This document shows, piece by piece, positions 50,970 to 58,879 of a DNA stretch of 64,000 nt (within the stretch, counting starts at the first letter, position 1; every line of letters starts with the position of its first letter). The DNA comes from Isosphaera pallida ATCC 43644. Its GTDB lineage: Bacteria > Planctomycetota > Planctomycetia > Isosphaerales > Isosphaeraceae. A program made the translations under genes and the position numbers. The notes beneath the pieces were generated by a model. The model worked only from the letters and a program-made list of their open reading frames with translations, did no database searches and was not told where the DNA came from. Location: contig NC_014962.1 in the NCBI RefSeq assembly GCF_000186345.1, positions 4,492,450 to 4,556,449 of the forward strand, written 5' to 3'.

Positions 50970-52520
50970 ATGCTCATTCCACGCTTCAAAACGGCGTCGA
51001 TCCCCACGGCTTCGCCCGCACACTCGCCAATGGTGAGGCTCGACCGTCGCGGCTTCCTCTGGCAATTCGGGGGCGGTTTGGGAGGGATCGCGCTGGCGTC
51101 TTTGTTGGGCCAGGACGGATGGATCGCCGGAGCCGAATCGACCGGCCTATCCTCTCGGACGGAACGGCGAATCAGCGACGGCTTACACCATCCCGCCCGC
51201 GCCAAGCGGGTCGTTCAGTTGTTCATGTCAGGCGCGGCAAGTCAGGTGGATACCTTCGACTACAAACCCGAGTTGATTCGACGCCACGGTGAACGGTTCG
51301 ACCCCGGCGGCAAGATCGAGTTGTTTCAGAGCAACCCCGGCAAAGTGATGCGCAGTCCCTGGAAGTTCCGGCCGCGGGGCGAGTGTGGGCGATTCGTGAG
51401 CGATTTGTTGCCCGAACTGGGCGGATGCGTGGACGACCTTTGTTTTTTGCACGCGATGACCTCAAAATCCAACGTGCATGGACCCGCCACCTTCCTGCAG
51501 GCCACCGGCTTTGTCAACCCCGGCTTCCCAGCGGCGGGAGCCTGGATCTCGCTGGCTTTAGGGTCAGACAACCAGGATTTGCCCACGTTCGTAGTCCTGC
51601 CCGACCAACGCGGCTTCGCCCCTAATGGACCGGCCAACTGGTCCTCTGGCTTCCTGCCAGCCGCCCATCAAGGCGTCATGATCCGTCCTAGCGCAGCCCG
51701 CCCCATCCTCGACCTCCACCCACCCGAAGAGGCCGGGTTGGACCCCGCGACCGACCGCGCTGGGCTCGACCTGCTGGATACCCTTAATCGCGCGCATCAG
51801 TCGCAGCGTCCGGGCGACTCCCGACTTGACGCCCGCATCGCCTCCTATGAACTGGCCGCCCGGCTCCAACTGGCCGCCCCCGAAGCGCTCGACGTGACCA
51901 ACGAGTCGCCCGCGACCCGTCGCGCCTACGGACTCGACGACGAAACCACCGCCGACTTCGGACGCAACTGCCTGATCGCCCGACGATTACTGGAACGCGG
52001 CGTGCGGTTCGTTCAGGTCTGGAACGGAGCCGACAACGGTTTCCCGCGGCGCAACTGGGACTCGCACGAGGATTTAGCCCGCGATCATGCGATCATGGGT
52101 CGTTCGCTCGACCAACCCGCGGCGGCGTTGATCCGTGACCTCAAGGCCCGCGGCCTCCTGGACGAAACGATTGTGGTCTGGTGTACCGAGTTTGGTCGAA
52201 TGCCCTGTTCCCAAGGAACCTTGGGACGCGACCACAACCCGCACGGCTTCACCGTCTTCGTGGCCGGCGGCGGCTTCAAGGGGGGAATCGCCTACGGACA
52301 AACCGATGAATGGTCGTATCGCGCCGTGGAACACCCCACCACGATCCACGACCTGCACGCCACGATTCTGCATCTGCTGGGCATTGATCACACCCGCCTC
52401 ACCGTGCGGCACAACGGCATCAATCGACGCTTGACTGATGTTCATGGCGAGGTGCTATTCTCACTGCTCAACTCAGAGCCCCAAAAGGCTGTTGTGGACG
52501 GTTCCCGCGACCAAGGCTGA
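50970..52520 (+). CDS. DUF1501 family Tat-exported protein
   Basis: A 516-residue second DUF1501 protein, here without a neighbouring DUF1549/DUF1553 gene. LDRRGFLWQFGGGLGGIALA at about 23 is a twin-arginine signal. Family blocks are VVQLFMSGAASQVDTFDYKP, FGRNCLIARRLLERGVRFVQ, CTEFGRMPCSQGTLGRDHNP and HATILHLLGIDHTRLTVRHN. It is only moderately similar to the protein at 13813-15315, so not a recent copy. Two starts are possible, ATG 50970 and ATG 51030 (MVRLDRRGF), neither with a strong ribosome binding site. Function is unknown for the family; a hydrolase fold is assumed. Confidence 0.9.
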   Translation: MLIPRFKTASIPTASPAHSPMVRLDRRGFLWQFGGGLGGIALASLLGQDGWIAGAESTGLSSRTERRISDGLHHPARAKRVVQLFMSGAASQVDTFDYKPELIRRHGERFDPGGKIELFQSNPGKVMRSPWKFRPRGECGRFVSDLLPELGGCVDDLCFLHAMTSKSNVHGPATFLQATGFVNPGFPAAGAWISLALGSDNQDLPTFVVLPDQRGFAPNGPANWSSGFLPAAHQGVMIRPSAARPILDLHPPEEAGLDPATDRAGLDLLDTLNRAHQSQRPGDSRLDARIASYELAARLQLAAPEALDVTNESPATRRAYGLDDETTADFGRNCLIARRLLERGVRFVQVWNGADNGFPRRNWDSHEDLARDHAIMGRSLDQPAAALIRDLKARGLLDETIVVWCTEFGRMPCSQGTLGRDHNPHGFTVFVAGGGFKGGIAYGQTDEWSYRAVEHPTTIHDLHATILHLLGIDHTRLTVRHNGINRRLTDVHGEVLFSLLNSEPQKAVVDGSRDQG

Positions 52521-52610
52521 ACGTCACCAGATGGAACCGAAAGCTAGACGCAAGCGCCGTCACCTACAAGGAATCAGACCATACCGGTCGATCGCTTGCA
52601 TGGTTTGAGT

Positions 52611-52958
52611 CATCGTGGTGAGCTGGGGAATGTCGTGAACTGCAGAACTCGAGCACTTTTCATGAAAACGCCTTCCCACGCGAGGCTTCGAGATCAGCGA
52701 CGAGCAATTCCCGCCGATCACTCACTTCTGGCCGGAGAAACTCAATGATCCGGGGATCACCGCCAAGGACAACAGAATCATTCCCCGAAGCTGTCTTTCG
52801 GATTGGACACAAAGGTCAGGAGTGAGTGAAACACGTTGTCCCGCCACGATGATCCCATGATCCCTTCTGGGATTCCGATTTCTCGACCAACCTCAAGCAC
52901 TCGGCCAAGCGAGCCCGGATCAGGTTACTAATCTAACTCGCCAGCGTGGTTGGGGGGG
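52611..52958. repeat. Direct repeat, left copy (~348 bp)
   Basis: This block matches 53731-54061 over its whole length, with scattered substitutions, a 17-base extra stretch near 52880-52900 and an extra C near 52787. Both copies contain the same minus-strand coding debris (RRELLVADLEASRGKAFS at the end). The left copy is the more broken. I do not recognise the protein. The rest of the spacer 52521-53050 shows no gene. Confidence 0.8.
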
Positions 52959-53050
52959 GAAACGCGACGAGCCAGCTTGTGCGAGGATGAGCGAATGGGC
53001 GACGATCCATCTCCGGTCAGTCGCCGTCTCTTGCGTCGGAGTCTTTTCTG

Positions 53051-53716
53051 ATGACCCTACCCCCTGGTTCAGAATCGAAATCGGTTCCATCAGTGTTGAC
53101 GAAGTTCAATCCGTTGTTCCGCATCCATGACGGGTATGTGCTAGGCCGTCGCGCCCGGCGGTTGGCCGAATTGTTGGCCGAGGTTCTGCCCGAGCGAACC
53201 GAAGTCCTTGATGTGGGTTGCGGAGACGGCAAAATCGCCGCAGCGATCATGCGGAGCCGTGCCGATGTAACGATCACCGGCCTGGAGGTCTTAGTGCGTC
53301 CTGACGCCGCCATTCCGATGAGCGTCTTCGATGGTCGTTCGTTGCCTTACTCTGATCAATCATTTGATGTCGTGATGTTCGTAGATGTACTGCATCATGC
53401 CGATGACGCGACCGCCCTGCTCCGCGAGGCGGTTCGGGTGGCCCGTTGCGCCGTCGTGATCAAGGACCACCGCTGCGAAAGTCGCATGGACAACTGGACT
53501 CTACGGTTCATGGATTACGTGGGCAACGCCCGCTACGGCGTGGCGTTGCCTTACAATTACTGGTCGATGGATCAGTGGAACGCTGCCTTCAACGAGGTTG
53601 GCTTGAGAGTGAGTTCGTGGCGATCCGAACTGGGGCTTTATCCTGCTCCGGCCTCTTGGGTCTTCGGGCGAAGTTTACATTTTCTGGGAGTATTAGAGAC
53701 AAGAAAAAACTTATAA
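53051..53716 (+). CDS. Class I SAM-dependent methyltransferase
   Basis: A 221-residue methyltransferase of the Methyltransf_11 type. The SAM-binding loop is VLDVGCGDGKIAAAIM (motif I, about residues 52-67), the motif II acid follows in TGLEVL, and the post-motif region is SFDVVMFVDVLHHADDATAL. The substrate cannot be read; neighbours suggest a sugar or lipid of surface glycans. It points opposite to the polysaccharide operon and lies exactly between the two ~340-bp direct repeats, so the segment may have been moved or duplicated as a unit. The last seven codons are AT-rich and run into the right repeat. Confidence 0.85.
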   Translation: MTLPPGSESKSVPSVLTKFNPLFRIHDGYVLGRRARRLAELLAEVLPERTEVLDVGCGDGKIAAAIMRSRADVTITGLEVLVRPDAAIPMSVFDGRSLPYSDQSFDVVMFVDVLHHADDATALLREAVRVARCAVVIKDHRCESRMDNWTLRFMDYVGNARYGVALPYNYWSMDQWNAAFNEVGLRVSSWRSELGLYPAPASWVFGRSLHFLGVLETRKNL

Positions 53717-53730
53717 TCACAATTTTAAAT

Positions 53731-54061
53731 CATCGTAGTGAACTAGAAAATGTCGTGAACTACAGAACTCGATCACTTTTCATGAAAACGCCTTCCCACG
53801 CGAGGCTTCGAGATCAGCGACGAGCAATTCCCGCCGATCACTCACTTCTGGCCGGAGAAACTCAATGATCCGAGGGTCACCGCCAAGGACAACAGAATCG
53901 TTCCCGAAGCTGTCTTTCGGATTGGGCACAAAGGTCAGGAGTGAGTGAAACACGTTGTCCCGCCACGATGATTCCATGATTCCCTCTGGGATTCCGATGC
54001 ACTCGGCCAAACGGGCCCGGATCAGGTTACCGATCTGACCCGCCAGCGTGTTGGGTGGCGG
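53731..54061. repeat. Direct repeat, right copy (~331 bp)
   Basis: Second copy of the block at 52611-52958, 1120 bases further on. On the minus strand it keeps a 76-codon frame (53780-54010: MESSWRDNVFHSLLTFVPNP, VVLGGDPRIIEFLRPEVSD) that is open upstream to about 54061, so it looks like the 3' end of a lost gene. No transposase motif or terminal inverted repeat is visible. The remaining bases of the spacer 53717-54117 hold nothing else. Confidence 0.8.
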
Positions 54062-54117
54062 AAATTCAACTTACCTCATTACCAAGCGGTATAATGTGAT
54101 TAGGATCAAGAACGAGA

Positions 54118-54837
54118 TTATTTTCGTAATCCAAGATAAAGAAGTTTTCCGCTTTGAATGATTGTTTTCTCACTGACAAAAAAGCGGTCAATAAGATCCA
54201 AGATTTCGACAGGCCGTGAAAGCCAGTTGAAGTAAGTTTCTGCTTCATGTTCTATCATGGTAGCAAGGGCGTCCAGTTTTTTCCAGGCCTTTCGGAACGG
54301 AGTGAAGGCTATAAAGTGGACAAAACCCAAAAATGGGGTATGCCAGGGTTCGACAGCGAGGAAGCGGCCGCCTGGGCGAAGAACCCTTCGGACCTCCGCG
54401 AGAGTGTGATTCAAGTCGTCAGGGAGGTTGATCAGGTGGTGCAAGCCACCCTGGACCACAACGGCATCCCTGCTCGAATCGGGTAGAGGCAAGGATCGGC
54501 AGTCACACACATGAATCGTATGGGGGCCCTGATACTCTGCGGCCAGCCGAGGGGAGAGGTCAGCTCCGTCGAGCCGGGTGAATCCGAGTTCGGAGAGGGC
54601 CACCAATCCATTGCCGCGTCCGGCGAAGATTTCGAGAATCTCTAGGTCGCGCGGCCACTCGGTGACGCCCAGCTGGCGGTAACGGCGATGGAACTTGCGC
54701 CGTTCCTGCTCCGGGGTGCTGAATCGGAGGTAGGCCGATTCCCAGACGTCCCAGTTTGGTTGAAAATCCTTGGGAAGACGGATGGGAAGCGTCACGCTGG
54801 ACCGAGTTGAAGAGTTTGACACTTGGAGAGGCTCCAA
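54118..54837 (-). CDS. Class I SAM-dependent methyltransferase
   Basis: A 239-residue methyltransferase. Motif I is LEILEIFAGRGNGLVALSEL, the acid strand LDGADLSP, the fourth strand RDAVVVQGGLHHLINLPDDL, and VRRVLRPGGRFLAVEPWHTP the typical late motif of Methyltransf_11/25 proteins. HTPFLGFVHFIAFTPFRKAW is a hydrophobic insert that may touch a lipid or membrane. Placed at the downstream end of the minus-strand polysaccharide genes, it could methylate a sugar (inference). The last 25 codons are AT-rich, unlike the rest. Confidence 0.82.
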   Translation of the reverse strand: MEPLQVSNSSTRSSVTLPIRLPKDFQPNWDVWESAYLRFSTPEQERRKFHRRYRQLGVTEWPRDLEILEIFAGRGNGLVALSELGFTRLDGADLSPRLAAEYQGPHTIHVCDCRSLPLPDSSRDAVVVQGGLHHLINLPDDLNHTLAEVRRVLRPGGRFLAVEPWHTPFLGFVHFIAFTPFRKAWKKLDALATMIEHEAETYFNWLSRPVEILDLIDRFFVSEKTIIQSGKLLYLGLRK

Positions 54838-54856: not shown

Positions 54857-55530
54857 TCAAGGTGTTGTAATCTTGACGGGTTTGACGTTTGAGGGGTCCC
54901 ACTCCCTCAGATCCATCGGTTGACGGAAGCCTCGTCCCGTCACCTGCCAAATTCGGCGGTTGGGGTAATGTTGAATGAGATCGAGGTTGCGGATATCGCC
55001 CAAATCCCAGGCCCAGATAATACGGGCGGAGTCGAGATCGGTGGGGTTATCGACCCAGACTACGTCTTCAGGAGGCATCGGACAATAAAAAACGAGATGA
55101 TTCCCTTTAATGCTGCTGAGTTTTAAGTCCACTCCATGCTTGGTGGATAAAATTACAGTAGCTTGTTGCTTGGCTTTACGACTCGCTGTTTCCGTCGCAA
55201 CGATTCCTCCCAAACCTTGACCTGGCGTATACTTTAACATTCGCGTTGGTTGGAGGGGGGCTTCGATGAACAAGGCAATCTCGTCGGGAATTGGCGGATT
55301 GGTCAACCGACCATGAGCGAAGGTATCAGCCGCGAGAAGATAAGAAAACTCATCTGTTTGTAGGGGTTGGGTGGTCCCAGAGCGATCGCCAGGGTAAGTG
55401 GGCTCAGCCAGCCCAGCAGTCCACTGATGACGATCGCCAACCATCCGGGCAGGAGTTGGGATGGCCTGGGTTCGGGCGGCGTGGGCGTAGGGTCCAAGGT
55501 GGGAGTCGTGGTGGAGGTTAGGGGATTCAT
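54857..55530 (-). pseudogene. Collapsed duplicate of the GT-C membrane protein
   Basis: Remnant of a paralogue of the protein at 55681-57291. It begins MNPLTSTTTPTLDPTP (ATG 55530), continues with a helix (LPGWLAIVISGLLGWLSPL) and IALGPPNPY, then shifts frame at about 55358 into TDEFSYLLAADTFAHGRLTN and QPTRMLKYTPGQGLGG. Near 55200 the text jumps to what aligns with the C-terminal end of the paralogue (HLVFYCPMPPEDVVWVDNP, ARIIWAWDLG, HYPNRRIWQVTGRG). The 390 or so central residues, all the other membrane helices, are gone. One frameshift plus one large internal deletion make it non-functional. Confidence 0.8.
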
Positions 55531-55620
55531 TCTGAAGTCCTCCCAATGGTCAGAATGCTGCACAAGAAGACGTTAAAGTAGAGTCCGTGCGCTGTTGAAA
55601 GAATAAAGGGTTTACATGTA
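55531..55620 (-). pseudogene. Remnant of a GT2 gene 3' end
   Basis: Directly upstream of the collapsed membrane-protein gene, this stretch matches the last 25 or so codons of the DPM1-like gene at 57288-58556, including the GTGCAGCAT and CATTGGGAG words and the ATGA overlap at its end. A one-base indel and a TAA break it. So the duplicated unit once held at least the end of the glycosyltransferase as well as the membrane protein. Confidence 0.7.
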
Positions 55621-55680: not shown

Positions 55681-57291
55681 TCATCTTAAGGAAGACGTTG
55701 CTTTTCGAAGAATTTTTAACTTATCAACATACCATACAACTCGATCAGGATAGAGCTTAATGAGTTTTTGATTAGCTTCACTTCCTTGATTGTTTGCCCA
55801 AATGATGAAAGCTAATTCTATGTTCGGCTCGTTTGAGAATGGAACTTCTTCGCAAAAAACTAAATGTTTATCAGACGGGAAGCGTCGCCGTAGTTCTTCT
55901 GAGATAGGAAACGTTGACGGGTATATTTTGGTCCGAATCGGACCAACCAAAAGACGATTCTGAATGTCGTGTGCAAATTGAACAAGTGGTTCTTTGGGAG
56001 CTCCTGCAATAAGAAGCAGAAGCAAAAGCCACTTCGTCAATGACCCGAAAGTCGATCTTAGGAGAGCGTGAGCCGATCTGAGTGACTCCGCAAAGAAAGC
56101 GTATACGAGCGGGGCACCAGGAACAAGATAATGGATGGACGTTCTAAAGGTAGAACTCCATGTTTGGACAGCAAAGCCAATCATTAGGAATGTCCAAACG
56201 AGAATGGGAAACCAATTCCACTTCTTCTGGATTGTGCCTAGACAACCTATGACAACAATGAGAATACCTGCTGGATTGAGACAAAATAGTGCGTTGAGCT
56301 TAAAGATAAATCTTGGGGTCCAGCGTAAGTGAACTAGTAAGTCGTCAGGACGGTAATTGTCAAGATAAAATTCCCTCATCCAAGATGGACAGAAAGTGAT
56401 TCTAGTTGGTTGTTGATCAGATTGAAATAAAAAAAGAGGGTTCTTAAAATATTGTTTGTGATGAAGTTGATAGGGCAGCACAAAGGGATTGCCTGTGACT
56501 GCCTTGTTATACATAGCAAGCCAAAGGAATCCCAGTAATAGAACTACTCCAAGAGGAAGAATAATCGCAACAAACAAATAACGATGATTCCAGATTTGGT
56601 TCTTTACCAGAAAACAACTTAGAACTAAAGCCGATGGAACCGCGACAAGAAATCCCTCGTAGGGGCGGGTGTTCGACAAGATGACTAGTCCTAAACCGAT
56701 CGCCACGCTATGGCCCCAAGTTGGTTTGGTCCAAACCCTTCTCAGCCCGCCGAACAGAAGAGCCGCTCCGAGACCAGTCACACTTTGTCCCATGTAGGAG
56801 AACGTCCAAGCAATAGGAGAAGGCCACTCACTGTATTGATTAACAATCCCGATTTGGAATATCATAAAGATCGTTGTGAAAACTGCGAGACGAGGTGTTG
56901 TCCAAGCAAACAGCATCCAACATAAGGCGGCCGAGAACAACCCGAAGCTCAGGTAAACACCGTACACATAGTCGCCAAACACATGGTAACCAAGAGCCAA
57001 CACAAGTCCTTGACCAGGAGGAAATTTCGCCATACGGGTGGGTTGGATCAACGTGAAAACTTCCTCAAAAAACGGCGCGAGATGGTCTTCGATGGGTGGA
57101 TTAGTGAGACGACCAAGCGCAAATGTTTGAGCTTGCAAACACATGCAGCTCTCATCCCAAGTTGAAGGATAAGGGATTCCGCGGATCAGACCTTCACCCC
57201 AAGCGACCAACCAACCCAACACGCCACAAACCAAAACCGCAAGCCATTCCCGCTGGGTGAGTTGGTTGAATCCTCTGTATATCATATTCAT
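55681..57291 (-). CDS. GT-C (GT39/ArnT-like) membrane glycosyltransferase
   Basis: A 536-residue polytopic protein. After one membrane helix it has the first-loop signature STWDESCMCLQAQTFALGRL, NPPIEDHLAPFF, and QPTRMAKFPPGQGLVLALGY, which in relatives reads DEFSYLLAADTFAHGRLTNPP (quoted in part). About ten helices follow, then a soluble C-terminal domain (RRFPSDKHLVFCEEVPFSNE). This fits lipid-linked-sugar-dependent GT-C enzymes of the GT39/ArnT kind, though the catalytic Asp-Glu pair here is followed by Ser-Cys rather than Phe-Ser. It is strikingly AT-rich compared with neighbours, suggesting recent transfer. Its ATG overlaps the stop of the DPM1-like gene (ATGA, 57288-57291), so the two are translationally coupled; such pairs transfer sugars from polyprenyl phosphate. 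Confidence 0.78.
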   Translation of the reverse strand: MNMIYRGFNQLTQREWLAVLVCGVLGWLVAWGEGLIRGIPYPSTWDESCMCLQAQTFALGRLTNPPIEDHLAPFFEEVFTLIQPTRMAKFPPGQGLVLALGYHVFGDYVYGVYLSFGLFSAALCWMLFAWTTPRLAVFTTIFMIFQIGIVNQYSEWPSPIAWTFSYMGQSVTGLGAALLFGGLRRVWTKPTWGHSVAIGLGLVILSNTRPYEGFLVAVPSALVLSCFLVKNQIWNHRYLFVAIILPLGVVLLLGFLWLAMYNKAVTGNPFVLPYQLHHKQYFKNPLFLFQSDQQPTRITFCPSWMREFYLDNYRPDDLLVHLRWTPRFIFKLNALFCLNPAGILIVVIGCLGTIQKKWNWFPILVWTFLMIGFAVQTWSSTFRTSIHYLVPGAPLVYAFFAESLRSAHALLRSTFGSLTKWLLLLLLIAGAPKEPLVQFAHDIQNRLLVGPIRTKIYPSTFPISEELRRRFPSDKHLVFCEEVPFSNEPNIELAFIIWANNQGSEANQKLIKLYPDRVVWYVDKLKILRKATSSLR

Positions 57292-58556
57292 TCTGAAGTT
57301 CTCCCAATGCTCAGGATGCTGCACAGGAAGCTGCCAAAGAGAGTCTGCGCGCCCAGGGTGGCCAGGGTCACACCCGGAATCACCCAGCGCATCGTTTGGG
57401 CGTAGTCCAACGCGCCGAAGTTGACCGACCACCACGACCCGACGGCCACCGCCAGGCAGACTAGACCCGCGACCATCAACCCCAACGCCAACGCCAAACC
57501 CCGTTCCAAATTGAAAAGCCGGAAAAACCGTTCAACGTTGGGCGTGCTGGGTCTCAGACCAGTGTTGATCGCGTAGGTGGTCGCCAATACCGCGAAGATC
57601 GCCGACTGTTGACCCAAAAGCAGCGCAAGGCTGGCCACCAAAAGGGTGTGGACGTCCAGAGTAATTCCGCCCAGGGTGACGCCTGGCAGGGCCAGGGCGT
57701 AGCCGATCAGCCCCACCGCCATCAGCAGCAATCCGGGATGCCAGAACAGCCAGCGGGGGGAGTAGAGCAAGTAAAACCGCAGGGTTCGCCAGCCGTCCCG
57801 GAAGGTACGAAGGTGCTTCTTGCCCACCACGCGGCCATCGGGCCAAAGGGTGATCGGAACCTCGGTGACCTTACGCTTGTAGATGCGCGACTTGACCACC
57901 ATCTCGGTGGCAAACTCCATCCCGGTGCAGCGTTGGCCAATCGCTTGATAGAACTCTTTGGTGAAGCCGCGCATCCCGCAATAGACGTCGTGAAACGGAA
58001 TGCGGAACATGACGCGGGCCAACGCGGTCAAGGCAGGGTTGCCCAACCAGCGATGCAGAAACGGCATCGCGCCTGGTTTGACGGTACCGCCGCCGGCAGG
58101 GAGTCGGCAACCTTGCACCAGGTCGTAGCCTTCGCGGAGCTTGGCGACGAACTTGGGGGTTTCGCCGAAGTCGTAGGAGTCGTCGGCGTCGCCCATCACG
58201 ATGAAACGCCCTTGGGCCGCGGCAATGCCGCCCATGAGGGCGTTGCCGTAACCGCGTTGAGTCACCGGCACCACCCGCGCTCCGGCCTGGGCGGCCAGTT
58301 CACGCGAGCCGTCGGTGCTGCCGTTGTCGGCCACCACCACCTCCCCGGCGATCCCATGCTCGCGGAAGGCCCGCAACGCTTTTTCAACGCACCTTGCAAT
58401 GGTTTCGTGTTCGTTGAGGCAAGGAATGACCACCGAGACCTCGACCTCGGGTTCCTGGTCCGAGACCGACGAGCCAACGGGTTGGTCCTGCGGGAGGGAT
58501 TCCGTGGTATCGCGGGTGACGTTAGTGTTGGGCTGGGAAAGGGATGTGGACGCCAT
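57288..58556 (-). CDS. DPM1-like family 2 glycosyltransferase with membrane tail
   Basis: About 422 residues. The catalytic GT-A domain has VSVVIPCLNEHETIARCVEK, VVADNGSTDGSRELAAQAGA, RGYGNALMGGIAAAQGRFIV and the DxD-type GDADDSYDF, then DVYCGMRGFTKEFYQAIGQR, all typical of polyprenyl-phosphate mannose/glucose synthases. The last 170 residues contain four membrane helices (LLLMAVGLIGYALALPGV, HTLLVASLALLLGQQSAIF and others). It should make a lipid-phosphate sugar used by the coupled GT-C protein downstream. The start ATG 58556 (MASTSLSQPN) follows an open but weak stretch. The C-terminal bases are duplicated at 55531-55620. Confidence 0.9.
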   Translation of the reverse strand: MASTSLSQPNTNVTRDTTESLPQDQPVGSSVSDQEPEVEVSVVIPCLNEHETIARCVEKALRAFREHGIAGEVVVADNGSTDGSRELAAQAGARVVPVTQRGYGNALMGGIAAAQGRFIVMGDADDSYDFGETPKFVAKLREGYDLVQGCRLPAGGGTVKPGAMPFLHRWLGNPALTALARVMFRIPFHDVYCGMRGFTKEFYQAIGQRCTGMEFATEMVVKSRIYKRKVTEVPITLWPDGRVVGKKHLRTFRDGWRTLRFYLLYSPRWLFWHPGLLLMAVGLIGYALALPGVTLGGITLDVHTLLVASLALLLGQQSAIFAVLATTYAINTGLRPSTPNVERFFRLFNLERGLALALGLMVAGLVCLAVAVGSWWSVNFGALDYAQTMRWVIPGVTLATLGAQTLFGSFLCSILSIGRTSE

Positions 58557-58879
58557 AGAGAAGTTCCGTGCGAGCCGATTGACCCAGTCCAAGTGTGGAC
58601 TTGGCCGAGAACAGAAACGAGTCGAATCCACTTGCGATGTTCGACCTTGGTTTATGCTGAATTGGATGAACCTAATCTACCTGTCGGAAAACACCGATCG
58701 CAAGCTCAGCCAGGACCAGTTATTGCCGAGAATGGAACAACCGGTAACGCAGACCGGCTCCAACTCACCTTGGTGTCGTTCCGAAACAACGGTTGAAGAC
58801 CGCAGGATTGCCAGCGGTATCTCAACCCACAACAAGGTGTTTCGAGTATAGAAGACACCCGACACTATAACGTTCGAAG
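58557..58879. other. Spacer inside the polysaccharide cluster
   Basis: These 323 bases between two minus-strand glycosyltransferases are the only sizeable gap in the run from wzm to the GT-C gene. A short palindrome, CCAAGT-GTGG-ACTTGG, lies near 58590. I see no gene; a secondary promoter for the downstream genes may sit here. Confidence 0.45.

What the first reader, a model, noticed from the sequence alone, without database searches (positions are those of the whole stretch)
52611..54061. Methyltransferase gene bracketed by ~340-bp direct repeats
The repeats (52611-52958 and 53731-54061) carry the same minus-strand coding debris and enclose exactly one methyltransferase gene at the border of the polysaccharide island. 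This resembles the product of a tandem duplication or a recombination-borne cassette; recombination between the repeats would delete the gene. No transposase is present.
Basis: seen in the sequence. Interest (0 to 1): 0.55.

Follow-up and report, generated by a model that had tools for sequence, protein, structure and literature searches.

The report
Methyltransferase gene between two dead transposon scraps
An intact sugar-island methyltransferase gene sits between two matching scraps of a long-dead jumping gene (an IS5-type insertion sequence), an ordinary trace of past genome shuffling rather than a new kind of system.

Summary
The repeats are real: 52604-52962 and 53724-54064, direct, 88% identical, the only two DNA copies found in the 5.53-Mb genome, whose size equals that published for Isosphaera pallida IS1B. 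The plus strand of each repeat encodes a decayed N-terminus of an IS5-family transposase (PF13340/NF033580). A relative's transposase finds both copies first in this genome (E 3e-7, 2.8e-6), and a frameshift-tolerant profile score far exceeds the controls (92 and 87; highest of 688 window segments 60, of 400 shuffles 50). The "minus-strand coding debris" is most likely antisense; its 95-residue frame has no relative.

The bracketed methyltransferase is intact, keeping 50 of 51 conserved residues. In 36 of 62 relatives it directly follows a glycosyltransferase on the same strand; here it is displaced and inverted. Both scraps share ends and lesions, so one local duplication of an already dead IS fragment fits better than two transpositions. 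No intact parent was found. Deletion by recombination is possible but unobserved; a 99-bp identical tract hints at gene conversion. Ordinary finding.

The parts
52604..52962 (+). Repeat copy 1: relic of the 5' part of an IS5-family transposase gene (recognisable codons 1-46 at 52678-52816); ACG in place of the start codon, 1-bp insertion in the C-run near 52786 that is private to this copy
53724..54064 (+). Repeat copy 2: same IS5-family transposase relic (recognisable codons 1-46 at 53798-53940); ACG start and the TGA at codon 49 shared with copy 1; 17-bp gap private to this copy
53051..53716 (+). MT1: intact class I SAM-dependent methyltransferase (Methyltransf_23/11), 221 aa, bracketed by the relics
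   Evidence: 50 of 51 conserved columns kept
54118..54837 (-). MT2: second methyltransferase, convergent with MT1; in other genomes its relative follows MT1 on the same strand
57288..58631 (-). GT: glycosyltransferase (best NCBIfam matches AglJ and dolichyl-phosphate hexose transferase, below cut-off) whose relatives directly precede MT1 elsewhere
55681..57435 (-). Membrane protein of the polysaccharide island (no Pfam or NCBIfam match)
54857..55546 (-). Internally deleted, decayed second copy of the membrane-protein gene; a second local duplication relic beside the first
   Evidence: three blocks, 31-52% identity
50970..52520 (+). DUF1501 gene upstream of repeat copy 1 (left neighbour, same strand as MT1)

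Best explanation
The repeats are two copies of one dead, right-truncated fragment (about 340 bp) of an IS5-family insertion sequence, in direct orientation on either side of MT1. SHOWN: the IS5-transposase similarity, the two-copy number, the common ends, the decay, the intactness of MT1 and its displacement and inversion relative to the GT-MT1-MT2 gene order seen elsewhere. INFERRED: an IS of this family entered the ancestor near MT1 and was truncated and inactivated; IS-associated rearrangement moved and inverted MT1 out of its operon; a later homologous event at the relic (a local duplication of the relic with MT1 followed by loss of one MT1, or single-crossover insertion of a circle carrying relic plus MT1 into the resident relic) left relic-MT1-relic. 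The repeats now have no function of their own. They are a place where homologous recombination could convert the copies or delete MT1.
For: The transposase frame of a relative's IS5 element (PF13340 E 1e-25; the same stretch fetched as L114 passes the NF033580 cut-off) finds the two copies as the top two places in the genome, E 3e-7 and 2.8e-6, 44-49% identity. Nucleotide match to three IS5 loci, 65-69% over 120-143 bp. Frameshift-tolerant profile (31 rows, two of them identical) score 92.1 and 87.4 on the plus strand, 32 and 34 on the minus strand; 400 dinucleotide shuffles give at most 50.0 and 688 other window segments at most 59.6. Both copies have ACG where the IS has its ATG and the same TGA in the transposase frame, and each has private indels. 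The genome's only two copies lie 1,120 bp apart; chance for two random positions within 1.5 kb is about 5e-4. No intact parent: PF13340 none at E<=1, NF033580 none at E<=0.1. MT1 keeps 50 of 51 columns that are at least 90% conserved in 62 relatives; GT directly upstream on the same strand in 36 of 62; MT2 directly downstream on the same strand in 9 of the 10 that have it. MT1 has no second match at E<=1e-10 in the genome.
Against: Only about 46 transposase codons are recognisable; the right third of each repeat gives no score above noise (24.5 and 27.4). Terminal inverted repeats could not be identified with confidence. PF13340 and NF033580 searched against the genome did not themselves hit the repeats, and an edited 48-residue peptide hit nothing in Pfam. 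Substitutions between the copies prefer the third position of the minus-strand frame (11 of 17, p 0.008 before correction for frames), a weak sign for the opposite strand. The shared lesions lie in tracts identical between the copies, so gene conversion could have made them shared. The duplication route is inferred, not shown. The tree of MT1 is unresolved and does not place it with the two other Isosphaeraceae rows.
Confidence: 0.72

Rival explanations
1. Remnant composite transposon: two full IS5-family elements inserted on either side of MT1 and moved it as a unit; both later decayed and shrank.
For: IS relics in direct orientation flank exactly one intact gene that is displaced and inverted relative to relatives.
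Against: Both relics end at the same internal point and share lesions; no transposase catalytic part, no clear terminal repeats; no other DNA copy in the genome.
Confidence: 0.13
2. Two insertions of a small non-autonomous (MITE-like) derivative of the IS mobilised in trans.
For: Common left and right ends of both copies; weak terminal-repeat-like scores near the left ends (about 0.004-0.005 per position, not significant after scanning 55 positions).
Against: Only two copies in the genome, both at one locus; right ends show no convincing inverted repeat.
Confidence: 0.07
3. A real minus-strand gene family (or its debris) whose C-terminal part is duplicated.
For: 95-residue open frame on the minus strand of copy 2; substitutions favour its third codon position 11 of 17.
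Against: No relative in 98 other genomes of the family and class, in 391 other genomes of a phylum draw (overlapping the former), or in the phage, plasmid or viral-contig collections; frame broken in copy 1; no Pfam match up to E 10; the plus strand explains the sequence.
Confidence: 0.04
4. An excision or phase-variation cassette: cells switch MT1 off by recombination between the repeats.
For: Direct repeats with a 99-bp identical tract, unlikely under even divergence (0.0021), suggest exchange between the copies.
Against: 8% divergence overall; none of the six frames scanned around it gave a recombinase family; no variant seen; only one genome of the species is held.
Confidence: 0.04

Closest known systems
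IS5 family insertion sequences, PF13340/NF033580 type (IS427-like by two-frame layout; the subgroup name is recalled, not tested)
   Same: N-terminal 46 transposase codons align, with the stretches FExxDExF and TAKDNR in register; DNA 65-69% identical over 120-143 bp to elements of Isosphaeraceae
   Different: Truncated, frameshifted, with stops; no catalytic domain; no sure terminal repeats; no intact copy found in this genome
IS-flanked gene / composite transposon remnants
   Same: Directly repeated IS sequence on both sides of one gene
   Different: The two relics look like duplicates of one dead fragment rather than two independent insertions
Conserved glycosyltransferase-methyltransferase-methyltransferase gene set seen
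   Same: MT1, MT2 and GT all present within 6 kb
   Different: MT1 moved out of its place behind GT, inverted, and facing MT2

Membership tests
IS5 family (PF13340/NF033580) | Transposase N-terminal domain of the family | tested here: met
   E 3e-7 and 2.8e-6, profile 92.1 and 87.4 against at most 59.6 in controls; but the family models themselves did not ring on the repeats
IS5 family (PF13340/NF033580) | Intact DDE transposase reading frame | tested here: not met
   Only about 46 codons recognisable; no ATG, in-frame TGA, indels. It is a relic, not a working member
IS5 family (PF13340/NF033580) | Terminal inverted repeats with TAGG-type ends and a short target duplication | tested here: inconclusive
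   Terminal-repeat matrix from 44 ends of 22 elements: best left scores at 52624 and 53744 (0.004-0.005 per position), none convincing on the right
Composite transposon | Two IS copies flanking cargo | tested here: inconclusive
   Two relics flank MT1, but share internal ends and lesions
Composite transposon | At least one functional transposase | tested here: not met
   None of this family found in the genome
MITE | Terminal inverted repeats and several dispersed copies | tested here: not met
   Two copies at one locus; no convincing terminal repeats
Phase-variable excision cassette | Population variants with and without the gene | not testable with these tools
   One genome per species held; no reads

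The most novel reading that the evidence does not exclude
The relic repeats work as a homologous excision cassette: exchange between them (hinted at by the 99-bp identical tract) deletes or circularises MT1 in part of the population and so varies methylation of a surface polysaccharide.
Probability: 0.04. Interest if true: 0.45.

Novelty: new member of a known kind. Interest (0 to 1): 0.17.

Why it matters
It settles a puzzling repeat as IS debris and shows a widely conserved polysaccharide gene order being broken at an IS relic while the displaced gene stays intact. It is a small worked example of how dead insertion sequences leave homology that can still rearrange surface-polysaccharide loci.

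Tried and rejected
Minus-strand protein reading: the 95-residue frame was searched in the own genome, 99 genomes of family and class (own included), 392 of a phylum draw (own included), viral contigs, phages and plasmids; no relative. In the own genome the only further places were weak (E 0.15-0.36).

Rfam: no family up to E 1 in 52400-54300. Promoter and terminator patterns: none found in 52480-54200. Plasmid collection with the whole repeat-gene-repeat DNA: no match.

Short DNA hits of the repeat's right part in relatives (R positions 279-331, four rows, E 0.0006-0.009): the two that I read lie in or near tetratricopeptide-like genes and were judged chance; the other two were not read. The 25-bp hit L024 was also set aside.

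Window segments at 42.87 and 44.5 kb scored 58.6 and 59.6 against the IS5 profile; the first, read, is a membrane-protein tail read with frameshifts and was taken as chance; the second was not read further.

Tree of MT1 (63 rows): bootstrap not settled, the window row falls with long branches; no statement on transfer is drawn.

The 62 relatives are L029-L090 of the 80 kept loci; the 18 weaker ones (L091-L108) were left out before the count.

Papers: PMC3072084 (passages) and PMC5352709 (a term search without hits) were opened; the rest were seen only as search listings.

Full report
OBSERVATION. The repeat pair is real. Copy 1 is 52604-52962 and copy 2 53724-54064, in the same orientation, start-to-start 1,120 bp, 87.7% identical with 26 substitutions, a 1-bp gap and a 17-bp gap. 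It is the only direct-repeat pair of at least 60 bp found in the window, and a search of the whole genome (two contigs, 5,529,304 bases) gives only these two places. The contig and total sizes equal those published for the Isosphaera pallida type strain, 5,472,964 and 5,529,304 bp (PMC3072084, passages; contig size). Between the copies is one intact gene, MT1, 53051-53716 (+), a class I methyltransferase.

WHAT THE REPEAT IS. Copy 2 does have an open minus-strand frame of 95 residues, but it has no relative beyond this locus in 99 genomes of the family and class (own included), 392 genomes of a phylum draw (own included), viral contigs, phages or plasmids. A DNA search of 45 Isosphaeraceae genomes (own included) instead matched R positions 71-171 and 84-199 to three places in two genomes (E 7e-6 twice, 0.009). 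At all three the strand that corresponds to the repeat's plus strand encodes the N-terminus of an IS5-family transposase, with PF13340 at E 1e-20 to 1e-25 and, for the one used as query, NF033580 above its cut-off. Searched the other way, that transposase finds the two repeats as the best two places in the genome (E 3e-7 and 2.8e-6) and a third small fragment at 3.13 Mb (E 0.005). A frameshift-tolerant alignment to a profile of 31 rows (the query plus 30 loci, one of them the query's own place) aligns codons 1-46 on the plus strand of both copies. The scores are 92.1 and 87.4; the minus strands give 31.7 and 34.3, 400 shuffles at most 50.0, and 688 other window segments at most 59.6. So each repeat is the decayed 5' part of an IS5-family transposase gene. 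'No transposase is present' is therefore incorrect.

STATE OF THE RELIC. In both copies the start codon reads ACG, and a TGA follows at codon 49 of the transposase frame; copy 1 has a private extra base before it, copy 2 a private 17-bp gap. The right third is no longer alignable. Terminal inverted repeats like those of 22 related elements could not be assigned with confidence. No better copy was found in the genome: PF13340 gives nothing at E<=1 and NF033580 nothing at E<=0.1. These same two models also fail to ring on the repeats, which shows how decayed they are. By contrast 26 of 45 Isosphaeraceae genomes searched (the own genome is among the 19 without) have a match to the query transposase at E<=1e-8.

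THE GENE BETWEEN. MT1 keeps 50 of 51 columns that are at least 90% conserved among 62 relatives (these are 62 of the 80 loci kept, the weaker 18 left out), so it is probably functional. It is the only match at E<=1e-10 in the genome. In 36 of the 62 loci a relative of the island's glycosyltransferase (57288-58631) lies directly upstream on the same strand; in 10 it is elsewhere in the locus, in 14 not found, and in 2 the contig is too short. A relative of MT2 is present in 10, directly downstream on the same strand in 9. In Singulisphaera acidiphila (L021/L036) MT1 and MT2 are adjacent and co-oriented, behind a glycosyltransferase that did not match the island's one. In the window MT1 stands beyond MT2, inverted and facing it, with a relic on each side. 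MT1's own phylogeny is unresolved.

HOW IT AROSE. The genome's only two copies lie at one locus (about 5e-4 for two random positions within 1.5 kb), begin and end at the same points and share lesions. This favours one local duplication of an already dead fragment over two transpositions. Two reservations. First, the shared start-codon lesion lies in a 99-bp tract without any difference (52654-52752), longer than expected from 26 evenly placed differences (105 of 50,000 simulations reach it); gene conversion could have homogenised the copies, and this tract is the only hint of exchange between them. Second, 11 of 17 differences fall on the third position of the minus-strand frame (p 0.008 before correction), which the plus-strand reading does not explain. 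The route (duplication with loss of one MT1, or insertion of a relic-MT1 circle by one crossover) is inference.

CONCLUSION. This is an IS-relic-flanked gene, a known kind of thing. Deletion of MT1 by recombination is mechanically possible but was not observed and is not testable here. I score it low for interest.

Noticed in passing
window 54857-55546 (-) and 55681-57435 (-): The membrane-protein gene has a decayed, internally deleted second copy beside it (three blocks of 31-52% identity), a second local duplication relic next to the repeat pair.
   Followed up: partly
L111:1501-1599 (genome contig C2, 3132977-3133075): Another small fragment of the same IS5-type transposase (codons 80-112, 55% identity) lies 1.4 Mb away, flanked by simple repeats of the type ACACCCCACTCCCC.
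   Followed up: partly
window 52654-52752 against 53774-53872: 99 bp without a single difference inside repeats that otherwise carry 26 differences; suggests gene conversion between the copies.
   Followed up: partly
L029-L090: A glycosyltransferase-methyltransferase pair, sometimes with a second methyltransferase, is kept side by side across many bacterial phyla; no NCBIfam family passes its cut-off for either methyltransferase of the window.
   Followed up: partly
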